Assembly: GCA_949298985.1 (NCBI GenBank)
Contig: CASFYV010000021.1
Location: 124,001-188,000 of the forward strand
From: an uncultured bacterium
Lineage (GTDB): Bacteria > Cyanobacteriota > Vampirovibrionia > Gastranaerophilales > Gastranaerophilaceae
Length of the DNA stretch: 64,000 nucleotides
Direction of reading: 5' to 3'
Of this stretch, positions 4,501 through 63,078 are shown one piece after another. The notes under the pieces were generated by a model. The model did not search any database. It worked only from the letters and a program-made list of their open reading frames with translations, and was not told where the DNA came from. Within the stretch, counting starts at the first letter, position 1. Every line of letters begins with the position of its first letter. The position numbers were made by a program, and so were the translations under genes.

Positions 4501-4636
4501 TGCAAGAGCTACTATGCGAATGATGATTAAAAAACTTTTAAAAGCCCATAAATATCCCCCAGAAGGTATGGATGATGCAGTCCAAACAGTTATGACACAA
4601 TGTGAGCTTTGGTCAGATAATGAATTAGAAAATTAA
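1595..4636 (+). CDS. hsdR: Type I restriction enzyme motor/endonuclease subunit HsdR
   Basis: ATP-dependent translocase and nuclease subunit of the type I R-M complex; cuts unmethylated foreign DNA away from the recognition site. At 1013 residues it has the normal length. The N-terminal PD-(D/E)xK nuclease shows D135 and the E149-x-K151 pair (VVIMELKSP). Superfamily 2 motor motifs follow: Walker A at about 287-294 (TQGSGKS), DEAH at 388-391, and TGTP shortly after. The C-terminal part is helical, as expected for assembly with HsdS/HsdM. The ATG directly follows the stop of the upstream gene, indicating coupling. No truncation or frameshift visible. Confidence 0.96.
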   Translation: MTVTFTEASYENSIIELFQDMGYNHIYGPDIERDYTSPLYEEVLVDSLYRINPKLCDDAIKDAIYKLKNFEIGELVQKNDIFMDYLQNGIEVRYLKDGEEHSDIAYLVDYENVENNSFIIANQWTFIENSEKRPDVILFLNGLPVVIMELKSPSREETDASEAYRQLKNYMHEIPSMFIYNAICVMSDQLTSKAGTITSDETRFMAWKTKDGDYENTQYAQFDTFFEGIFQKERLLDIIKNFICFSKDGLDIFKILAGYHQYFAVKKAVQSTKRAVETDGKGGVFWHTQGSGKSLSMVFYAHLLQNALNSPTIVVITDRNDLDNQLYTQFAKCKDFLRQEPVQASSRENLKELLDGREANGIIFTTMQKFEESAEPLSTRRNIIVMADEAHRGQYGLAEKVDSKTGEIKVGTARIIRNCLPNATFIGFTGTPVSIKDRNTREVFGDYIDVYDMTQAVEDGATRPVYYESRVVKLQLDEPTLRLIDKEYELMAHKADPEVIEKSKRELGQMEAILGNPSTINSLVTDIIEHYETNIADKLTGKAMIVAYSRTIALDIYHKILELRPDWTEKVKVVMTESNNDPEEWRKIIGNKHHRDELAKDFKKNDSEFKIVIVVDMWLTGFDVPSLATMYVYKPMSGYNLMQAIARVNRVFEDKEGGLVVDYVGIASALKQAMNDYTVRDRKNYGDPNIETSAYPKFLEKLEVCRDIMHGFNYSKFNNGTDLERGRLISGGMNFLIGVENEKLKERFIKEALLLHQALSLCSSLVARDNRIEAAFFEAVRVLVVRYMNEGSEKKISLKEMNQKINELLKQSIKSDGVINLFQDVKEEFSLFDPKFLDEISKMKEKNVAVEVLKKLLAEQVSIYKRTNFVKSEKFSEIIKAAMNRYINGMITNEEVIEELLNIAKQIAKAKEEGNELGLTVDELAFYDALTKPAAIKDFYENDELIAITKELTDTLRKNKTIDWQKKASARATMRMMIKKLLKAHKYPPEGMDDAVQTVMTQCELWSDNELEN

Positions 4637-8739: not shown

Positions 8740-9009
8740 ATGAAAATTAATCCAATTGTAAATTCTAACCCTAGTCAAACAAATTTTAAAGCTGTTAATC
8801 AAAAGTATTTGAAATGGGCTGAAAAAGATTATAAAAGAATAAAGGATGTAAGTAGTGAATTACTTGAATCATTAAGAGATGATGTATGTTTATTTGGAGA
8901 TATTTCTTCTAAAGATGGTGTTGATACGATGAATGCTATTAGAAAATATTCAAAACCTTCTGGTAAAGATGTTTTTGAACATGTTTTAGATAATATCAGA
9001 AATGCTTAA
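8740..9009 (+). CDS. Cassette small protein, copy B (89 aa)
   Basis: Paralogue of the 5761 protein, with the same MKINPIVNSNP start and F-K-A motif. The ATG at 8740 follows AAAAAGGAG by 8-9 nt; the upstream GTG at 8731 lies in the ribosome binding region. It differs from the other copies mainly at YKRIKDVSSE (residues ~31-40) and KYSKPSGKDV. The stop shares TTAA (9006-9009) with the convergent 282-residue gene. Function unknown; it may act with the opposing gene product. Confidence 0.75.
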   Translation: MKINPIVNSNPSQTNFKAVNQKYLKWAEKDYKRIKDVSSELLESLRDDVCLFGDISSKDGVDTMNAIRKYSKPSGKDVFEHVLDNIRNA

Positions 9010-9854
9010 TCTAATAGTTTAGCAACTTTATTTCCTGCAATAGCACCTAAGCCCATACCGACAAGAGAACCGACCGGACCTAAGTATTTAGCTCCGATAG
9101 CACCGCCATAGCCAATACCTGCGATTGAGCTAACAATGTTTATTGCAGATTTTGCAGTAGATTTTATAGCATTCTCTCCATCTGAAATTTCTTTTACTAA
9201 ATGAGCAGCTTCAAGTCCACCCAATACTGCTGTCCCTATTTTTGTCGTTCTTGTCATTGCTCTTGCTGTTAATTCTCCAAATGTAGATTTTGTTACGAAG
9301 TTTTTTGCTATGATATATGAAGGTTTTGTTTCTGTGTGCGTTATATTTTTGATATTAGTTTTAATTCGATTTTCATCAATATTAAATTTTTTTATTACCA
9401 TTTGTCCAATTTTAGTATTCCATAATGTTGTATCATTTTTCAAAAGCCATTTAGCAAGCTTAGGACAAGGACTTGTTTTAGGATTTACAAACTTGTGCAA
9501 CAAAGTTCCTCTAAAAAATGAGAACGGATGTTGAGCAATTTTATAATCATAGGAAGGGGTAAATGGTTTGTTCGTTAGTTTTGATTTTATTTGTGTATAA
9601 GCAGATTTCATATCTCTCCAATCCTCAGGAGCATTAAGAACTGCAAGAGCAACAAGACCACTTGCTGGAACAAAGTCTGAATTTTCAATTTTATCCGGTA
9701 CTTTCTCAATCCTTCTGAAGGTAGGTATAACATCGAATACAGAAGGAAGCTTGTTCTCTTTATCAACACAATCTTTTACACCCTCATAATCTTGTTGGAT
9801 TTGAGGAAGCTTATCTGCTTGGTATTGATACATTATTGGATTAGCTGCACACAT
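9006..9854 (-). CDS. Cassette large protein, copy B (282 aa)
   Basis: Unrecognised 282-residue protein with a soluble N-terminal two thirds and a glycine/alanine-rich, zipper-like hydrophobic C-terminus (about residues 235-280, with GIGYGGAIGAKYLGPVG and GMGLGAIAG). Such a C-terminus could insert into a membrane or pack as a helical hairpin. The ATG at 9854 has AGAAGGTAG upstream. Compared with copy C it is nearly identical except for about residues 148-180, where many residues differ. Convergent with the 89-residue gene. A membrane-active effector paired with the small protein is one hypothesis; nothing in the sequence proves it. Confidence 0.75.
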   Translation of the reverse strand: MCAANPIMYQYQADKLPQIQQDYEGVKDCVDKENKLPSVFDVIPTFRRIEKVPDKIENSDFVPASGLVALAVLNAPEDWRDMKSAYTQIKSKLTNKPFTPSYDYKIAQHPFSFFRGTLLHKFVNPKTSPCPKLAKWLLKNDTTLWNTKIGQMVIKKFNIDENRIKTNIKNITHTETKPSYIIAKNFVTKSTFGELTARAMTRTTKIGTAVLGGLEAAHLVKEISDGENAIKSTAKSAINIVSSIAGIGYGGAIGAKYLGPVGSLVGMGLGAIAGNKVAKLLD

Positions 9855-10063: not shown

Positions 10064-10333
10064 ATGAAAATTAATCCAATTGTAAATTCTAATCCTAGTC
10101 AAACAAATTTTAAAGCCGTTAATCAAAAGTATTTGAAATGGGCTGAAAAAGACTATAAACTCGTTAAAGATATCAGTGGAGAGCTTTTAGAATCTTTACG
10201 AGATGATGTGTGTTTATTTGGTGATATTTCTTCTAAAGATGGTGTTGATACGATGAATGCTATTAGAAAATATATGAATCCAGGAAGTAAAGAAGTTTTT
10301 GAACATGTATTAGATAATATCAAAAACGCTTAA
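10064..10333 (+). CDS. Cassette small protein, copy C (89 aa)
   Basis: Third paralogue, same N-terminal MKINPIVNSNP and F-K-A motif, ATG 8-9 nt after AAAAAGGAG. Differences from copy B cluster at YKLVKDISGE and KYMNPGSKEV. The stop shares TTAA (10330-10333) with the convergent gene. Function unknown. Three expressed-looking copies next to two intact and one decayed partner suggest that the small gene can persist without its partner. Confidence 0.75.
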   Translation: MKINPIVNSNPSQTNFKAVNQKYLKWAEKDYKLVKDISGELLESLRDDVCLFGDISSKDGVDTMNAIRKYMNPGSKEVFEHVLDNIKNA

Positions 10334-11178
10334 TCTAATAGTTTAGAAACTTGGTTCCCTGCAATAGCACCTAAGCCCATACCTACAAGAGATCCTACCG
10401 GACCTAAGTGCTTAGCTCCAATCGCACCACCATAACCAATCCCTGCAATTGAACTAAAAAGGTTTATTGCAGATTTTGCAGTAGATTTTATAGCATCTTC
10501 ACCATCTGAAATTTCTTTTACTAAATGAGCAGCTTCAAGTCCACCCAGTACTATTGTTCCAATTTTTGTTGTTCTTGTCATTGCTCTTGCTGTTAATTCT
10601 CCAAAAGTAGATTTTGTTATAAAATTTTTTGCAATAATATAAGAAGGGTTTTCTTTGGTATGTATAATATTTTTAATCTTTGTTGAAATTTTCTTTTCTT
10701 TTATATTAAATTTTTTAGTAACGCAAGCTTTTAACTTGGTATCCCATAAAGTTGTATCATTCTTCAATATCCATTTAGCAAGCTTAGGACAAGGACTTGT
10801 TTTAGGATTTACAAATTTGTGTAATAAAGTTCCTCTAAAAAACGAGAATGGGTGCTGTGCAATTTTGTAATTATAGGAAGGGATAAATGGTTTGTTCGTT
10901 AGCCCTGATTTTATTTGAGAATATGCAGATTTCATATCTCTCCAATCCTCAGGAGCATTAAGAACTGCAAGAGCAACAAGACCGCTTGCTGGAACAAAAT
11001 CCGAGTTCTCAATTTTATCCGGTACTTTCTCAATTCTTCTGAAGGTAGGTATTACATCAAATACAGAAGGAAGCTTGTTTTCTTTATCAACACTACCTTT
11101 TACCTCCTCATAATCTTGTTGGATTTGAGGAAGTTTATCTGTTTGATATTGATACATTATTGGATTAACTGCGCACAT
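10330..11178 (-). CDS. Cassette large protein, copy C (282 aa)
   Basis: Paralogue of the 9006-9854 product with the same length, N-terminal domain and glycine-zipper C-terminus. Start at ATG 11178, preceded by AGAAGGTAG. The middle block around residues 148-180 differs clearly from copy B (LKACVTKKFNIKEKK versus IGQMVIKKFNIDENR), while flanking regions are almost unchanged. No known domain. The minus-strand upstream region holds a plausible TTTTCA-N16-TATATA promoter, conserved in copy B. Confidence 0.75.
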   Translation of the reverse strand: MCAVNPIMYQYQTDKLPQIQQDYEEVKGSVDKENKLPSVFDVIPTFRRIEKVPDKIENSDFVPASGLVALAVLNAPEDWRDMKSAYSQIKSGLTNKPFIPSYNYKIAQHPFSFFRGTLLHKFVNPKTSPCPKLAKWILKNDTTLWDTKLKACVTKKFNIKEKKISTKIKNIIHTKENPSYIIAKNFITKSTFGELTARAMTRTTKIGTIVLGGLEAAHLVKEISDGEDAIKSTAKSAINLFSSIAGIGYGGAIGAKHLGPVGSLVGMGLGAIAGNQVSKLLD

Positions 11179-13569: not shown

Positions 13570-14700
13570 ATGGGTGCGACATCATCAATTACAATTAACA
13601 CAAATTTGGCGTCATTAACCTGTCAGTCTTATCTTAGAGATGCAACTAAAGGTATGAACACGGCAATGGAAAGATTATCAACCGGCTTCAGAATTAATTC
13701 CGCTGCTGATGACGCCGCAGGATACGCTGTATCTGCTGGAATGGAAGCCAAAATTAACGGTTATGATATCATTGAAACTAATGCTCAAATGGGTTTAGAT
13801 ATGTTAACAACTCAAGAAGGTATTCTTGATATCATTAATGACTATCTGCAAAGAGTTAGAGACTTGACTATGCAAGCTGCTAACGGAACTTATGGTTCTG
13901 CATCGTTAGATGCTATTAAAACTGAAGTCGTTCAAAGAATGGATGAAATAAATCGTCTTTGTCAAATTACAGATTTCAATGATACTTATCTTCTTGACGG
14001 TTCTAGAACTACAGATATAAATTTACAAGTTGGATTATATTCTGATGCAAGATGCGTAATTAAAATGGATGCATTCTTATTTGCAAGTGCAGAGTCATCT
14101 GTGATTTTTGGATTTGGATCTGCAGGTGTCAAAAATCCTGATGGGACTTCTCAAGGATATTTAGATTTAACAGCTAGAGATGATAAAGATGAAGCAAATG
14201 GATACATTTATCAAGCTAGAATTATTGATGCAAACGGACAGCCTGTTCTTGATGCAGATGGTAATATTCAATATAAAGCAGGTTATTATAAATCAGCATT
14301 AGCTGCTGCTTTAGCAGAAAATGGCACAATCGAATATGCAGGAGGCGGAGCTAGTGCAACTCTTGCTGCTGGGAAAACATTCTCTATAGAAGACATGTGC
14401 AGTGCTATCTATAGAAACGATTCATCTGCTCGTGAATTTATTGATCAAATTGACTTAGCTATTGACAACATTTCATTAAGATCAACAAAAATAGGTGCTT
14501 ATATGAACAGATTAGAATCAGCTATTGATTCTACTGATGTTCAAAGAGAAAACTTAACAGAAGCAAATTCAACAATTAAAGATGCTGATGTTGCAACTGA
14601 ATCGTCTAATTACATTAAGTACCAAATTTTACAACAATCTACGGCAACATTATTATCAACAGCAAATCAAATGCCTTCAATTGCTTTGAATTTAATTTAA
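13570..14700 (+). CDS. fliC: Flagellin
   Basis: Filament subunit of the flagellum. The N-terminal D0/D1 region is classic (SITINTNLASL, RLSTGFRINSAADDAAGYAVS) and the C-terminal D0 helix ends LLSTANQMPSIALNLI. The 376-residue length implies a short surface domain (about residues 165-285). LQRVRDLTMQ at about 93-102 matches the TLR5-binding site of activating flagellins. Unusually there are four cysteines (C18, C131, C162, C277), whereas flagellins normally avoid Cys. Strong AAAGGAAA ribosome binding site and a FliA-like promoter. No other flagellar gene is in the window, so it is a solitary flagellin locus. Confidence 0.95.
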   Translation: MGATSSITINTNLASLTCQSYLRDATKGMNTAMERLSTGFRINSAADDAAGYAVSAGMEAKINGYDIIETNAQMGLDMLTTQEGILDIINDYLQRVRDLTMQAANGTYGSASLDAIKTEVVQRMDEINRLCQITDFNDTYLLDGSRTTDINLQVGLYSDARCVIKMDAFLFASAESSVIFGFGSAGVKNPDGTSQGYLDLTARDDKDEANGYIYQARIIDANGQPVLDADGNIQYKAGYYKSALAAALAENGTIEYAGGGASATLAAGKTFSIEDMCSAIYRNDSSAREFIDQIDLAIDNISLRSTKIGAYMNRLESAIDSTDVQRENLTEANSTIKDADVATESSNYIKYQILQQSTATLLSTANQMPSIALNLI

Positions 14701-42720: not shown

Positions 42721-43350
42721 ACATTGCACACAAGAAATAATCGAAACAGAAAAAATGAAACGATTACACTACCTTACCCAATCAAATTAAATAAAATAAT
42801 AATACTTCAAGGCAAGGAATTAACAATAAAAAATAATAAAAGATTAGATTGAAGAGTAAATTCCATATCAAAGAACTCTTTATTATAGCCGTAAAAAATT
42901 CTGGCTTGAAGTCTTAATTACAGATTCATAAGAAAATAAAAAACTTAATATTAAATTATTTTTTATAAACCATCTGCAAGTTATGAGAACGATACAAAGA
43001 AAAGATTAATGAACTAATTAGAATATTCTTAGAATAAATAAAATAATTTTATAATGAATAAAAACAAAAATAAGTTAAAGTAAAAAAAATAACCGTGCAT
43101 ACAATATTAAAGTAAAAGAACACGAATGTTAAAAATTGGATTAATAATAGAGCGATAAAAATTCTTAATTATTTGACACCTGAACAAGTTTTTCAACTTC
43201 ATAGTATTACGATTGCTTCTTGAATTCACCTAAAGCATTTTGTAAACTTTTGTAAAAAAAAAGTTATATACTCTAAAGAAAAAAAAATATATGTCGTTAT
43301 ACTTATTGAGTTAAATATTAGCTAATATAAATACAAAGAAAGGATGTTTT
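42721..43350. other. AT-rich intergenic region
   Basis: No supported gene on either strand. It holds one copy of a 26-bp repeat (43205-43230) whose partner lies at 44952-44977. The rest is AT-rich with frequent stops in all frames, possibly decayed DNA. Confidence 0.6.
43205..43230. repeat. 26-bp direct repeat, copy 1
   Basis: Matches 44952-44977 at 25 of 26 positions (TATT[A/G]CGATTGCTTC...). Weaker similarity continues downstream in both copies (GCATT, then TTTGTAAAA). The pair flanks the three genes at 43351-44571. Confidence 0.65.
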
Positions 43351-43713
43351 ATGCAAAAAAATAGTTTTAATGAGTTTCAATTCAAAGAATATGAGTCCAT
43401 AATGAAACTCAATGCGAATCAAGATGATAAATTAGAGGGAGTTCAAGTTGATAGTTTAGAAGAACGAATAGAAACGGTATCTAACTTTTTAAAGTATAGA
43501 GAATTACTATCATTAATTGCTTCTAATAATACTTTTAAAGAATTTTCTTTAAATAACGGTACACGAGTTAAAGTTTTTTCAAAAAATGGACTTATTAATA
43601 TTTCAGAGAAAACAAGTAATGGAGAAATTATTAATATCGTAGTATCTACTATAGATGCAAGTGCTACGGCTGAAACATTATATCAAATTGCAACTGAAGT
43701 AAAAAATAAATAA
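43351..43713 (+). CDS. Hypothetical protein (120 aa)
   Basis: Acidic 120-residue soluble protein beginning MQKNSFNEFQFKEYES, with a helical N-terminal half and a beta-rich C-terminal half (TRVKVFSKNGLINISEKTS, NIVVSTIDASATAETLYQI). AAAGGAT ribosome binding site. It precedes the 57-residue peptide gene by 10 nt and probably shares its transcript. In peptide-biosynthesis loci such a small acidic protein could be a chaperone or carrier; no family evidence supports that. Confidence 0.65.
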   Translation: MQKNSFNEFQFKEYESIMKLNANQDDKLEGVQVDSLEERIETVSNFLKYRELLSLIASNNTFKEFSLNNGTRVKVFSKNGLINISEKTSNGEIINIVVSTIDASATAETLYQIATEVKNK

Positions 43714-43723
43714 GGAGGAATTT

Positions 43724-43897
43724 ATGAGTTGGTTTAGCAATTATTGTGCAAATGTAAAATCACATTTTTTAGAAAACACCTGGATGACAAGAGAAGCAAT
43801 GAATGGTGCTGCAGGGGGGTTGGGATGTGATGAATGCGCTGGTTGGGCTTATATGGTAGGTGGTGTTGCCGCCTGCATACAAGCATTATTTGATTAG
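43724..43897 (+). CDS. Cys/Gly-rich short peptide with double-glycine motif (57 aa)
   Basis: Excellent AAGGAGG ribosome binding site 5 nt upstream. The 57-residue product opens MSWFSNYCANVKSHFLENTW, continues TREAMNGAAGG and ends with a hydrophobic 25-residue segment LGCDECAGWAYMVGGVAAC plus IQALFD. Four Cys (residues 8, 35, 38, 51), a Gly-Gly where leader peptidases of bacteriocin exporters often cut, and a small hydrophobic core give it the look of a bacteriocin or modified-peptide precursor. No modification enzyme or ABC peptidase transporter is adjacent. The alternative is a small membrane protein. Confidence 0.6.
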   Translation: MSWFSNYCANVKSHFLENTWMTREAMNGAAGGLGCDECAGWAYMVGGVAACIQALFD

Positions 43898-43911
43898 AAG
43901 CGAGGTTTATT

Positions 43912-44571
43912 TTGGTTAAAAGTATTAACAGTATAAAATCTAATAATATAAAAGATAACAATATTAATAGTAGCAATATTCCATCTTCAAAATCAAATTC
44001 TATTTTTGATGTTAATGGAGATGGAATAATATCCGGATATGAAAAAATGATTCGAGAAAAATCAGAAGTCGAAACAACAAAAAATGGTGTTCGAATAAAA
44101 GTAGATGCTTTGATAATTAATCTTGAAGGGGATATTGATAACTTTAAATTAGATTTGAGTAAGGGTGCCCCTTATGATTATGTTATAACAAATACTAAAA
44201 CAAACACTAAAATACGATTTGATGATGCTTTAATTGGTGATGAACAAATTAAGTATGGAAATTTTTTAATAAAATATGATGAAAAATCTTCTACAGAAGT
44301 AATATCTATAGATAATTATCTAAAAGGTAATGCTCCATTAGATGACGGATTAACAATTAATGTAGGACAAGTAAAAAATTCTGAAATTAATATTAAAGAT
44401 AGTTCTATAAGAAAAATTGATACTACTAATGCCGCAAATGCTGACATAAAGTTGTTTAATTGTACTGGCGATGGAATTTTTCTCTTTAATGGTAAAATTT
44501 CTTGTAATAAAAAAGAAGATATAAAATTATTAGAGAAATGCTCTAATATAAATATAGAGTATAAAAACTGA
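43912..44571 (+). CDS. Protein with EF-hand-like calcium loop (219 aa)
   Basis: Starts at TTG 43912 with GAGG upstream, 14 nt after the peptide gene. An Asn/Ser-rich N-terminus is followed by FDVNGDGIISGYEKM (about residues 33-46), a canonical DxNxDGxIxxxE EF-hand/dockerin-type calcium loop. The rest is beta-rich with repeated NINIKDSSIRKID-type strands, like a small beta-helix or jellyroll. No signal peptide. Possibly an extracellular or structural partner of the upstream peptide; unknown family. Confidence 0.7.
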   Translation: MVKSINSIKSNNIKDNNINSSNIPSSKSNSIFDVNGDGIISGYEKMIREKSEVETTKNGVRIKVDALIINLEGDIDNFKLDLSKGAPYDYVITNTKTNTKIRFDDALIGDEQIKYGNFLIKYDEKSSTEVISIDNYLKGNAPLDDGLTINVGQVKNSEINIKDSSIRKIDTTNAANADIKLFNCTGDGIFLFNGKISCNKKEDIKLLEKCSNINIEYKN

Positions 44572-45010
44572 TTAAAAAATACTGTTTTCTTTATTTAAAT
44601 CAGATATTTTATCAATTGGTGGGTTATTAATCGTAAGAGAACCCATCATTTTTATTATAAACTATTAATTAAAACTTTAAGCCAGAAATTTTTATTCCTA
44701 TTATTTTTTCGTATTTGAAGACCTTTTATTCATTCTCAATATATTATAACAAACTAATAAATAAACTATTAAGAATAAATACATATATCTCCTTCAAAAT
44801 ATCTATTTAAGAACATATATTTTACTCCTATAATAAAAATTTTCTGAATGATTTAAATCTCCTAATATTGCATTTAGTGTTTTGCCTAATTCTTTTATTA
44901 TTATTTTATTTCATTCGATAGCGTAAGATGTTATAATTGTTTCATCTTTACTATTGCGATTGCTTCTTGAATTCACCAATTAGGCATTGTTAATATTTGT
45001 AAAATTTTAT
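44572..45010. other. AT-rich intergenic region
   Basis: No supported gene. Contains the second copy of the 26-bp repeat (44952-44977) and a weak imperfect hairpin (GGTGGGTT about 44617 and AACCCATC about 44639) that may end the 43912 transcript. Confidence 0.55.
44952..44977. repeat. 26-bp direct repeat, copy 2
   Basis: Partner of 43205-43230, one mismatch. Lies 34 nt before an intrinsic terminator. Confidence 0.65.
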
Positions 45011-45096: not shown

Positions 45097-47079
45097 ATGA
45101 AAAAAAAGAGTATTAAATTTTTATCATTTGTTTTAGCAACAATGTTTGCTTCAATGCCATTATCTTATGCTTCTATTGACACAGGATTAGGAAACGGCCT
45201 TGGCGGAGCTGTTATTGACAATGTACAAGGAGGATTCGTTGGAATTGATAAAGGAAATGGTTCAGCAGATTTGAATTTTAATGGAGATTCTATTGTAAAT
45301 TGGGATTCTCTAAACGTAAACAAAGGAGAAAATCTTAATTTTAATGCTGTAAATGGCTCTAATAATTTAACGATCCTAAACACAGTAAACAATGGAATGT
45401 CAACGATATATGGACAAATTAGTGCAAATAGCGGTATTGGGAAATTAATCATTTCAAACCCTAATGGTATGTTATTTGACGGTTCAACTTTCACAACTGC
45501 TGGAGATGTAATGTTAACAACTCAAGACATGTCAGGTCTTGGAATTAATGATTTATCTCAAGCAAAATTTACACAAATTTATGATAAATCAGGCAATATA
45601 ATTGGAATAAACATACAAAATGGTGCTTTATTTGACATTGGAGGAGAATATAGTATCATAGCTCCTTCAATTAATGCTTCAAATTCTACTATAAATGCAA
45701 ATTCTCTAAAATTAATAACTGCAAATGGGCAAGATTATTTATCTTTGGGAGCAAATGCTCCAACCAACAAACCTGTTGTAAGACTAGAAGCAATGAATAT
45801 TAACGGAGATGTTTATATAGTTTCAGGTCCAGGAGCTGTAAGCACTGTAAATGGTGGTAAAATTAACGGCAATTTAGATATCAAATCAGAAGGAAATGTC
45901 GGATTAAATTACAAAACAGACAGTCAAAAATTAATAGTGACTGGAGATGTTAATGTAATAAGTAACGGCGAAGGCATGTTTATGAGAGATGCTGAAATTG
46001 GCGGTAACTTATCAATGACAAACGGAAAAGGTTTCGTAGATGTCGGAGATATCACAGTAACAGGTAATGCAATTCTAAAAACTACAAATGTTGAAAACGG
46101 TGCTTACAAACACTTTGTTCACGTTATTGGAGATACAGTTATCGGTGGCAATTTAACTATTGATTCTGAAAATAACATTCACATTGGTGGTTATGATTAT
46201 GATGCAGGTAAATTGGCGGATGGTAGTTTAACAGTTGGCGGCACAATTGATGCATACGCAAACAATGGAACAATAGCTGTTACAATAGATACAACTGCTG
46301 ATTCAATAAAATTAAAATCTGAAAATTTAAATATAATTACAGACGGAAAAGCACTTTTGAAAGCTAATAATTATGATTTTAGTGCAAAAGGATACATTGG
46401 AGGTCTTCAAACAACTAAAAATTCTACAGTAGATGAACAAATCATCTGTACTATGGAAGATTATAAATTATTAAATAATCCAAGCAGTCATACAAATATG
46501 AATATTGCAGGAGGTGAAATTACAAATATTTCAACAGATGCGTATGCATATATAGAATCAGCTGGCGATTTAAAAGTTACAGGCGCAAATGCAAATAAAG
46601 TTTACTTAACCGCTCCTGACAAAACAATTGAAATCACAGGTGATAAAGTTCACGCTGATACTATTACAATTGGCAATAAAACTGAAAATTTAAAAGTTGA
46701 TTTCCCTTCAAGAGATTACAATTTAAAATACACAAATATTCGTGATGCAAAAGAAGTTACAATAAATGGTGACCAAGAAATCACATATGAATTAACAAAT
46801 GGTGAAAATGGATACAATATTAGCGACAACCGTCAAGATGATACTACATACTTATATGGTCCTAGTGATGAAAATCCAACAGAACCACCTATATTACCAG
46901 ATGGTGATGATAGTATGAAAGTTTTAAGAAGTTATGAAAAACAAACTGTAAATATGTCTCAAGTTTATACTCCAGTTGCTTATGCTGCAGACTTAGACGA
47001 TGACCATATTGATAGAGGCGTTAGAAAAAATGTTGACGGATCTGTAACTGTTGTTAAAGCTTTCCCTATGGTAAATTAA
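45097..47079 (+). CDS. Two-partner-secretion exoprotein (filamentous haemagglutinin N-domain)
   Basis: Signal peptide MKKKSIKFLSFVLATMFASMPLSYA, then a TPS domain (about residues 26-160) with the diagnostic LNFNAVNGSNNLTILNTV and ISNPNGMLFDGS. A beta-helix-like region with repeated NGDVYI/GNLDI/GNAIL rungs follows to about 560, then a Pro/Asp-rich tail. Such proteins pass the outer membrane through a TpsB partner, and act as adhesins or toxins. No tpsB is in the window. 660 residues, short for the family and without a large toxin tail. Confidence 0.87.
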   Translation: MKKKSIKFLSFVLATMFASMPLSYASIDTGLGNGLGGAVIDNVQGGFVGIDKGNGSADLNFNGDSIVNWDSLNVNKGENLNFNAVNGSNNLTILNTVNNGMSTIYGQISANSGIGKLIISNPNGMLFDGSTFTTAGDVMLTTQDMSGLGINDLSQAKFTQIYDKSGNIIGINIQNGALFDIGGEYSIIAPSINASNSTINANSLKLITANGQDYLSLGANAPTNKPVVRLEAMNINGDVYIVSGPGAVSTVNGGKINGNLDIKSEGNVGLNYKTDSQKLIVTGDVNVISNGEGMFMRDAEIGGNLSMTNGKGFVDVGDITVTGNAILKTTNVENGAYKHFVHVIGDTVIGGNLTIDSENNIHIGGYDYDAGKLADGSLTVGGTIDAYANNGTIAVTIDTTADSIKLKSENLNIITDGKALLKANNYDFSAKGYIGGLQTTKNSTVDEQIICTMEDYKLLNNPSSHTNMNIAGGEITNISTDAYAYIESAGDLKVTGANANKVYLTAPDKTIEITGDKVHADTITIGNKTENLKVDFPSRDYNLKYTNIRDAKEVTINGDQEITYELTNGENGYNISDNRQDDTTYLYGPSDENPTEPPILPDGDDSMKVLRSYEKQTVNMSQVYTPVAYAADLDDDHIDRGVRKNVDGSVTVVKAFPMVN

Positions 47080-62230: not shown

Positions 62231-62598
62231 TAAAAGACTCCTTCTTGGGATAATTATATTTAAACTAATAAAGAAACATATTCCCCTACTGTAGAAGACC
62301 ATCGTATAAATCAATTTAGGGAAAAAGAAAACAGGTCGGTTAAATATCCTTCCTGTTAAGATTTTACACTAGCCGAAATATAAATAGCAATATCATTGTA
62401 CATTAAAATCAATAAAAACACAAATAAATATTTACACTTGAAATTGTTTTAAATATTGAATAAAAGACTATAATCCAATCATATCTTTAAAATTTTTAAA
62501 TGAAGAAATGTAAAGTTGTGTAACATTTATATATTTTTTATATATAAACTAGTCAATTATCTTTACATACCAAACTTTATATATATGAGGCAATATAT

Positions 62599-63078
62599 AT
62601 GAATTCAAAATTTAATTCGATAGTTAGTAATACAGAAATAAATGCTCTAAAAGAAATGATACTAAAACGAGCATCAGAAAAAGCCGAACAAAAAACAGAA
62701 GAAGAGCACGTTGAAATCATGGACATGGCAAGAAATTCTTTTATAAGTAAAAATAATCCATTTTCTCAAATTGCTAACAACAATATAAACACCACTCCCA
62801 AAACATCCTCTACAGATATAACAAATATAAATGAATCAGAAGCAAAATCTTCAATTAGAAAACACGAAATTGGGTTTCCTATAAAACAACAAGACAAAAT
62901 CATTCAAACAAAAGTTTTAAATGATATAAAACAAATAACATTAAACAACAACATGCACGAAGCTCGAGCAAGCTTAAATCAAAACGCTAAGTTTAATAGT
63001 GCAATAGAATTTTTGAATAGTCAGGCACTTGTATCTCTATTAAAAGTAAAATCACAAAATTTTGAAATTTTAGTATAA
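62599..63078 (+). CDS. Hypothetical protein (159 aa)
   Basis: Polar, Asn/Lys/Thr-rich 159-residue protein without Cys or membrane segments. The N-terminal helix NALKEMILKRASEKAEQKTEEEH and C-terminal helix LNSQALVSLLKVKSQ flank a disordered-looking middle. GAGG ribosome binding site. Its 3' end is close to the GC-rich structured element at 63086. No family recognised. Confidence 0.65.
   Translation: MNSKFNSIVSNTEINALKEMILKRASEKAEQKTEEEHVEIMDMARNSFISKNNPFSQIANNNINTTPKTSSTDITNINESEAKSSIRKHEIGFPIKQQDKIIQTKVLNDIKQITLNNNMHEARASLNQNAKFNSAIEFLNSQALVSLLKVKSQNFEILV

What the first reader, a model, noticed from the sequence alone, without database searches (positions are those of the whole stretch)
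43351..44571. Possible novel peptide locus: 57-residue Cys/Gly-rich product between an acidic protein and an EF-hand protein
The peptide has a polar leader-like half, Gly-Gly, then LGCDECAGW and a hydrophobic Gly/Ala-rich end with a further Cys. The strong ribosome binding site and tight spacing (10 and 14 nt) indicate an operon. It looks like a bacteriocin or modified-peptide precursor without the standard modification genes nearby; flanking 26-bp repeats mark the locus edges.
Basis: partly seen in the sequence, partly recalled or inferred. Interest (0 to 1): 0.6.

Follow-up and report, generated by a model that had tools for sequence, protein, structure and literature searches.

The report
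Orphan small-protein operon between IS30 remnants
The tiny peptide gene is real and sits in a three-gene operon that lies between two decayed copies of a jumping gene and is missing from the closest relatives; nothing shows that it is a bacteriocin, and what the peptide does is still unknown.

Summary
Confirmed: ORF1 (120 aa), a 57-aa Cys/Gly-rich peptide and an EF-hand-loop protein (219 aa) form a tight operon (gaps 10 and 14 nt). All three read as coding. Peptide and ORF3 have no detectable relative; ORF1 has two, in one other locus type. The "26-bp flanking repeats" are inverted-repeat ends of a decayed IS30-family insertion sequence. One remnant (42727-43230) lies left of the operon; another, inverted, lies right (about 44650-44977). 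The segment 42727-44984 is absent from three close relatives, so the operon looks like cargo of an old composite-transposon-like insertion. It has its own promoter-region motif (TTGTWAANTTTTGTAACA, 111 nt before ORF1), shared family-wide with flagellin, adhesin (TPS) and other non-Sec protein genes. Bacteriocin reading: not supported. The genome has no Peptidase_C39 exporter, no maturase was recognised nearby, and the leader consensus is only partly matched. In the one related locus, an ORF1 homologue is again next to a small Gly-rich single-helix hydrophobic peptide, in opposite gene order. Best guess: a membrane or exported small peptide with a dedicated cytosolic partner (ORF1). Mechanism is inference. 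The organism is a gut Melainabacteria-type genome.

The parts
42727..43230 (+). Decayed IS30-family copy 1: left inverted repeat with N-terminal remnant (42731-42804) to C-terminal end of the transposase (43128-43220, VKNWINNRAIKILNYLTPEQVFQLHSITIAS*) and right inverted repeat
   Evidence: tblastn match to G149 copies, C-term E 6e-14; alignment with G149 elements; HTH_38 in the G149 copy; IS30-annotated hits in plasmids
43202..43230 (+). First '26-bp repeat': right-end inverted repeat of IS30 copy 1, CGATTGCTTCTTGAATTCACC
43240..43257 (+). 18-bp promoter-region motif TTGTAAACTTTTGTAAAA (consensus TTGTWAANTTTTGTAACA), 111 nt before the ORF1 start
   Evidence: 22 hits (<=2 mismatches) in 533 kb against 0-4 for shuffled motifs; 11 lie 75-135 nt before an ORF, against 0-1
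43351..43713 (+). ORF1, 120 aa, mildly acidic, no Pfam/NCBIfam/PHROG match; homologues in one other locus type (two MAGs)
43724..43897 (+). 57-aa Cys/Gly-rich peptide, orphan; C-terminal hydrophobic helix about residues 38-56
43912..44571 (+). ORF3, 219 aa, no Sec signal seen, one exact EF-hand loop (DVNGDGIISGYE), orphan
44617..44655 (+). Probable transcription terminator after ORF3 (GGTGGGTT..AACCCATC stem, then TTTTTATT)
   Evidence: -11.5 kcal/mol, z -1.9; not listed by the consensus scan
44650..44977 (-). Partial, inverted IS30-family copy 2 (left inverted repeat at 44977 inward; transposase N-terminal remnant at 44901-44821)
44949..44977 (+). Second '26-bp repeat': outer inverted repeat of IS30 copy 2
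42727..44984 (.). Whole inserted segment, absent from the same intergenic site of G233, G094 and G247; CATTG at both junctions

Best explanation
Shown: the locus is an orphan three-gene operon lying between two decayed, oppositely oriented IS30-family copies, at an intergenic site that is empty in three close relatives. It carries a promoter-region motif that also precedes flagellin, TPS-adhesin and other surface or secreted-type genes of this bacterial family. Inferred: the operon was brought in as cargo of an IS30-type composite element and is expressed with that gene class. The 57-aa product is a small single-helix membrane-active or exported peptide, and ORF1 is its dedicated cytosolic partner (export chaperone or protector). 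ORF3 is a Ca-binding, non-Sec protein that acts with it outside the cytosol.
For: Empty site in G233, G094 and G247. IS30 identity of the repeats. 18-mer enrichment and its placement before flagellin and TPS genes. In G241/L164 and L163 the ORF1 homologue (31-32% identity) directly follows a 109-aa ORF with a Gly-rich hydrophobic helix (mean hydropathy 1.9), so small hydrophobic peptide plus ORF1 recurs with the gene order reversed. EF-hand-loop proteins recur in the 18-mer class (L122, EF-hand E about 1e-5).
Against: The window peptide and the G241 peptide are not alignable beyond chance. The hydropathy of the window helix is borderline (1.5). ORF1 has no confident model (pLDDT 47) and no fold match. 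The only FlhA hit in this genome covers the C-terminal half of the model, so a flagellar-type export route is not shown. Loss from the three relatives instead of gain is not formally excluded. The IS ends are too decayed for a firm target duplication.
Confidence: 0.4

Rival explanations
1. Class II-type bacteriocin with a double-glycine leader: cleaved after GG32 to release LGCDECAGWAYMVGGVAACIQALFD, with ORF1 as immunity protein.
For: GG at 31-32, hydrophobic residues at -7 and -12, Cys/Gly-rich hydrophobic C-terminal half, small acidic neighbour (leader pattern from own knowledge).
Against: No Peptidase_C39 in the genome. E lies at -9 and not -8, A at -4. No family match. ORF3 has no role in such loci.
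Confidence: 0.1
2. Toxin-antitoxin-like pair: the hydrophobic peptide harms the cell's own membrane and ORF1 neutralises it, which would explain retention on a mobile cargo.
For: Small hydrophobic peptide next to an ORF1-family protein in two locus types with opposite order; carried between IS remnants.
Against: No match to known families in Pfam or NCBIfam. ORF3 is unexplained. Promoter motif is of the surface-protein class. PADLOC library not searched.
Confidence: 0.15
3. Ordinary orphan small proteins of a fast-evolving surface or secreted class, with no special peptide function; the Cys/Gly pattern is incidental.
For: Shared promoter motif with many short-range, poorly conserved non-Sec proteins; ORF3 and peptide are orphans.
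Against: Recurrence of the peptide plus ORF1 arrangement in a second locus type.
Confidence: 0.3

Closest known systems
IS30-family composite transposons (e.g. Tn6330, ISApl1-mcr-1-ISApl1; PMC5821093)
   Same: Cargo genes between two IS30-family copies; IS copies can be lost afterwards.
   Different: Here both copies are decayed, inverted to each other, one is partial; cargo is an orphan small-protein operon; target duplication uncertain (CATTG).
Double-glycine (C39-processed) class II bacteriocin precursors
   Same: Small size, GG in the middle, hydrophobic Gly-rich second half.
   Different: No C39 exporter in the genome, weak leader match, no known family.
Peptide plus ORF1-homologue locus beside flhB-like and sigma-factor-like genes in Melainabacteria MAGs (L163, L164)
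   Same: ORF1 homologue next to a small Gly-rich hydrophobic peptide gene.
   Different: Peptide is 109 aa and lies upstream, no EF-hand ORF3, peptide homology not significant.

Membership tests
IS30 family (repeats and flanks) | Transposase with N-terminal HTH_38 and IS30-type C-terminus | tested here: met
   In related G149 copies: HTH_38 E 2e-13, best hits IS30/ISApl1/IS4351. In the window only remnants.
IS30 family (repeats and flanks) | Terminal inverted repeats of about 20-30 bp | tested here: met
   Two inverted ends in G149 L203, L204, L206 and in the window.
IS30 family (repeats and flanks) | Short target-site duplication | tested here: inconclusive
   CATTG on both sides, but empty sites read CAATG, TATTG and TATG, and the ends are decayed.
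Composite transposon | Two IS copies bounding cargo that moved as a unit | tested here: inconclusive
   Two copies bound the operon and the whole is absent from three relatives; movement as one unit cannot be shown.
Double-glycine bacteriocin | C39 peptidase-containing ABC exporter | tested here: not met
   No PF03412 in the genome, 94% complete.
Double-glycine bacteriocin | Leader consensus LSxxELxxIxGG | tested here: inconclusive
   MTREAMNGAAGG: -12, -11, -7 and GG fit; -8 and -4 do not (read from the sequence; consensus from own knowledge).
Modified (RiPP) peptide | Maturation enzymes nearby | tested here: inconclusive
   None recognised among the window ORFs by reading them; only selected ORFs were scanned with Pfam; not searched genome-wide.
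Toxin-antitoxin pair | Toxic small peptide and neutralising partner | not testable with these tools
   Needs expression experiments.
EF-hand protein (ORF3) | Loop DxNxDGxIxxxE | tested here: met
   DVNGDGIISGYE in the sequence; Pfam EF-hand models do not report it, so a single loop only.

The most novel reading that the evidence does not exclude
A new two-gene module in gut Melainabacteria: a short Gly-rich hydrophobic peptide with a dedicated ORF1-family partner, under the promoter motif of surface and secreted proteins and spread between lineages by IS30 elements, acting on neighbours or host.
Probability: 0.15. Interest if true: 0.6.

Novelty: new member of a known kind. Interest (0 to 1): 0.3.

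Why it matters
It corrects the reading of the repeats (mobile-element ends, not peptide-locus edges) and points to a family-wide 18-bp promoter-region motif shared by flagellin, TPS-adhesin and orphan small-protein genes in an uncultured gut lineage. That motif gives a way to list the lineage's surface and secreted proteins.

Tried and rejected
Peptide homologues: own genome, 383 genomes of the order, GTDB contigs, IMG/VR; weak hits such as L002 lie across unrelated genes, chance. ORF3 homologues: hits in M16-like peptidases and single short segments, chance; a weak PDB hit to an ADP-ribosyltransferase (E 0.002, N-terminal segment only) not followed. ORF1 against PDB: ankyrin hits are repeat-summing artefacts, no single stretch passes. 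G304 L162 as a third ORF1 homologue: scores like decoys, left open. First idea that the 26-mer is a regulatory site: rejected after its patchy, multi-copy distribution (9 of 229 genomes, 12-21 copies in three) and IS30 coding in it. Structures of ORF1 and peptide too poor to interpret.

Full report
Observation. The window lies at 124001-188000 of contig C21 of a 1.79-Mb, 94%-complete genome. The described ORFs, Shine-Dalgarno sequence and spacings are as stated. Codon use supports all three as genes. None has a significant match in Pfam, NCBIfam or PHROGs.

Taxonomy. The only named ORF1 relative lies in an uncultured Candidatus Melainabacteria MAG (L164; contig length and ORFs equal G241:C15). 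The window genome is in the same genus as G241 by the tool's kinship labels. A Gastranaerophilales placement would be my own inference.

The repeats. The right-end sequence recurs dozens of times in some genomes of the genus, often at contig ends. With one mismatch allowed it is in 9 of 229 family genomes, with 16, 12 and 21 copies in G125, G159 and G149, and only two in this genome, both in the segment. In G149, loci L203, L204 and L206 show 700-850-bp elements with two inverted ends. One of them encodes an N-terminal HTH_38 domain (E 2e-13), and the other end encodes WINNRPIKILNY.TPEQVFQLHSVAIAS; both hit IS30, ISApl1 or IS4351 transposases. The window holds the C-terminal remnant at 43128-43220 and an N-terminal remnant on the minus strand at 44901-44821. 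So the 26-bp repeats are IS30-family inverted repeats.

The insertion. In G233 (neighbour protein 95% identical), G094 and G247 the sequence runs from window 42724-42726 straight on to 44985-44988. The segment 42727-44984 is therefore an insertion here or a loss there. Its ends are the inverted IS repeats (80% over 74 nt), and CATTG stands at both junctions. Gain is favoured by the IS remnants and by the absence of peptide and ORF3 relatives from all sampled genomes, but is not proven.

The promoter-region motif. Just outside most copies of the repeat lies TTGTWAANTTTTGTAACA, about 100 nt before a start codon. It also occurs without the repeat. In 533 kb of loci not chosen by the repeat or the motif there are 22 matches with up to two mismatches (shuffled motifs 0-4), 11 of them 75-135 nt before an ORF (shuffled 0-1). 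Genes behind it include flagellins (L129, L134), TPS-like adhesins, the MGMAASQ family and an EF-hand protein. The ORF1 copy has one mismatch and lies 111 nt before its ATG; the adhesin gene at 45097 has its own, which the empty-site relatives keep. The IS thus appears to insert next to this motif (inference).

The operon products. ORF1 has real homologues only in L164/G241 (E 5e-14) and L163. There it follows a 109-aa ORF with a Gly-rich hydrophobic helix, beside an flhB-like and a sigma-factor-like gene (named from the sequence, not scanned). Helix hydropathy is 1.87 and 1.94 there and 1.5 in the window peptide. Sequence similarity of the peptides is not significant. The recurring pairing with reversed order is the only functional clue.

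Bacteriocin reading. No Peptidase_C39 and only a partial leader match. A published analysis reports that gut Melainabacteria lack a type I secretion system and that one of the analysed gut genomes lacks a complete flagellar gene set (PMC3787301). The single FlhA hit here covers only the C-terminal half of the model, so the export route is open.

Verdict. A real but obscure orphan operon, probably old IS30-borne cargo. Function is not established; the mechanism offered is inference at 0.4.

Noticed in passing
L196:11266-12744 (G000:C26, minus strand): A 493-aa protein matches only the C-terminal half of FlhA (PF00771 positions 321-655) and lies near what look like deoA, skp and bamA genes; no other FlhA hit in this genome although a flagellin gene is at window 13570-14700.
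   Followed up: partly
G125 loci L135-L142: Short IS30 inverted repeats (about 26-30 bp) stand alone next to the 18-mer, with little or no transposase left; 16 copies in one genome. Possibly kept for promoter function or spread as a miniature element.
   Followed up: partly
window 62508-62525: An 18-mer-like site (ATGTAAAGTTGTGTAACA) 91 nt before a 159-aa non-Sec ORF at 62599.
   Followed up: no
window 45097-47079: TPS-domain (PF05860) adhesin-like gene; the empty-site relatives keep its 18-mer-like site.
   Followed up: partly
window 9006-9854 and 10330-11178: Two very similar tandem 282-aa genes (MCA[AV]NPIMYQYQ[AT]DKLPQIQQDYE...).
   Followed up: no
L164:4417-4452 and 4580-4625: Long palindromic CCAATGTAACA...TGTTACATTGG repeats just before the peptide-ORF1 genes.
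   Followed up: no
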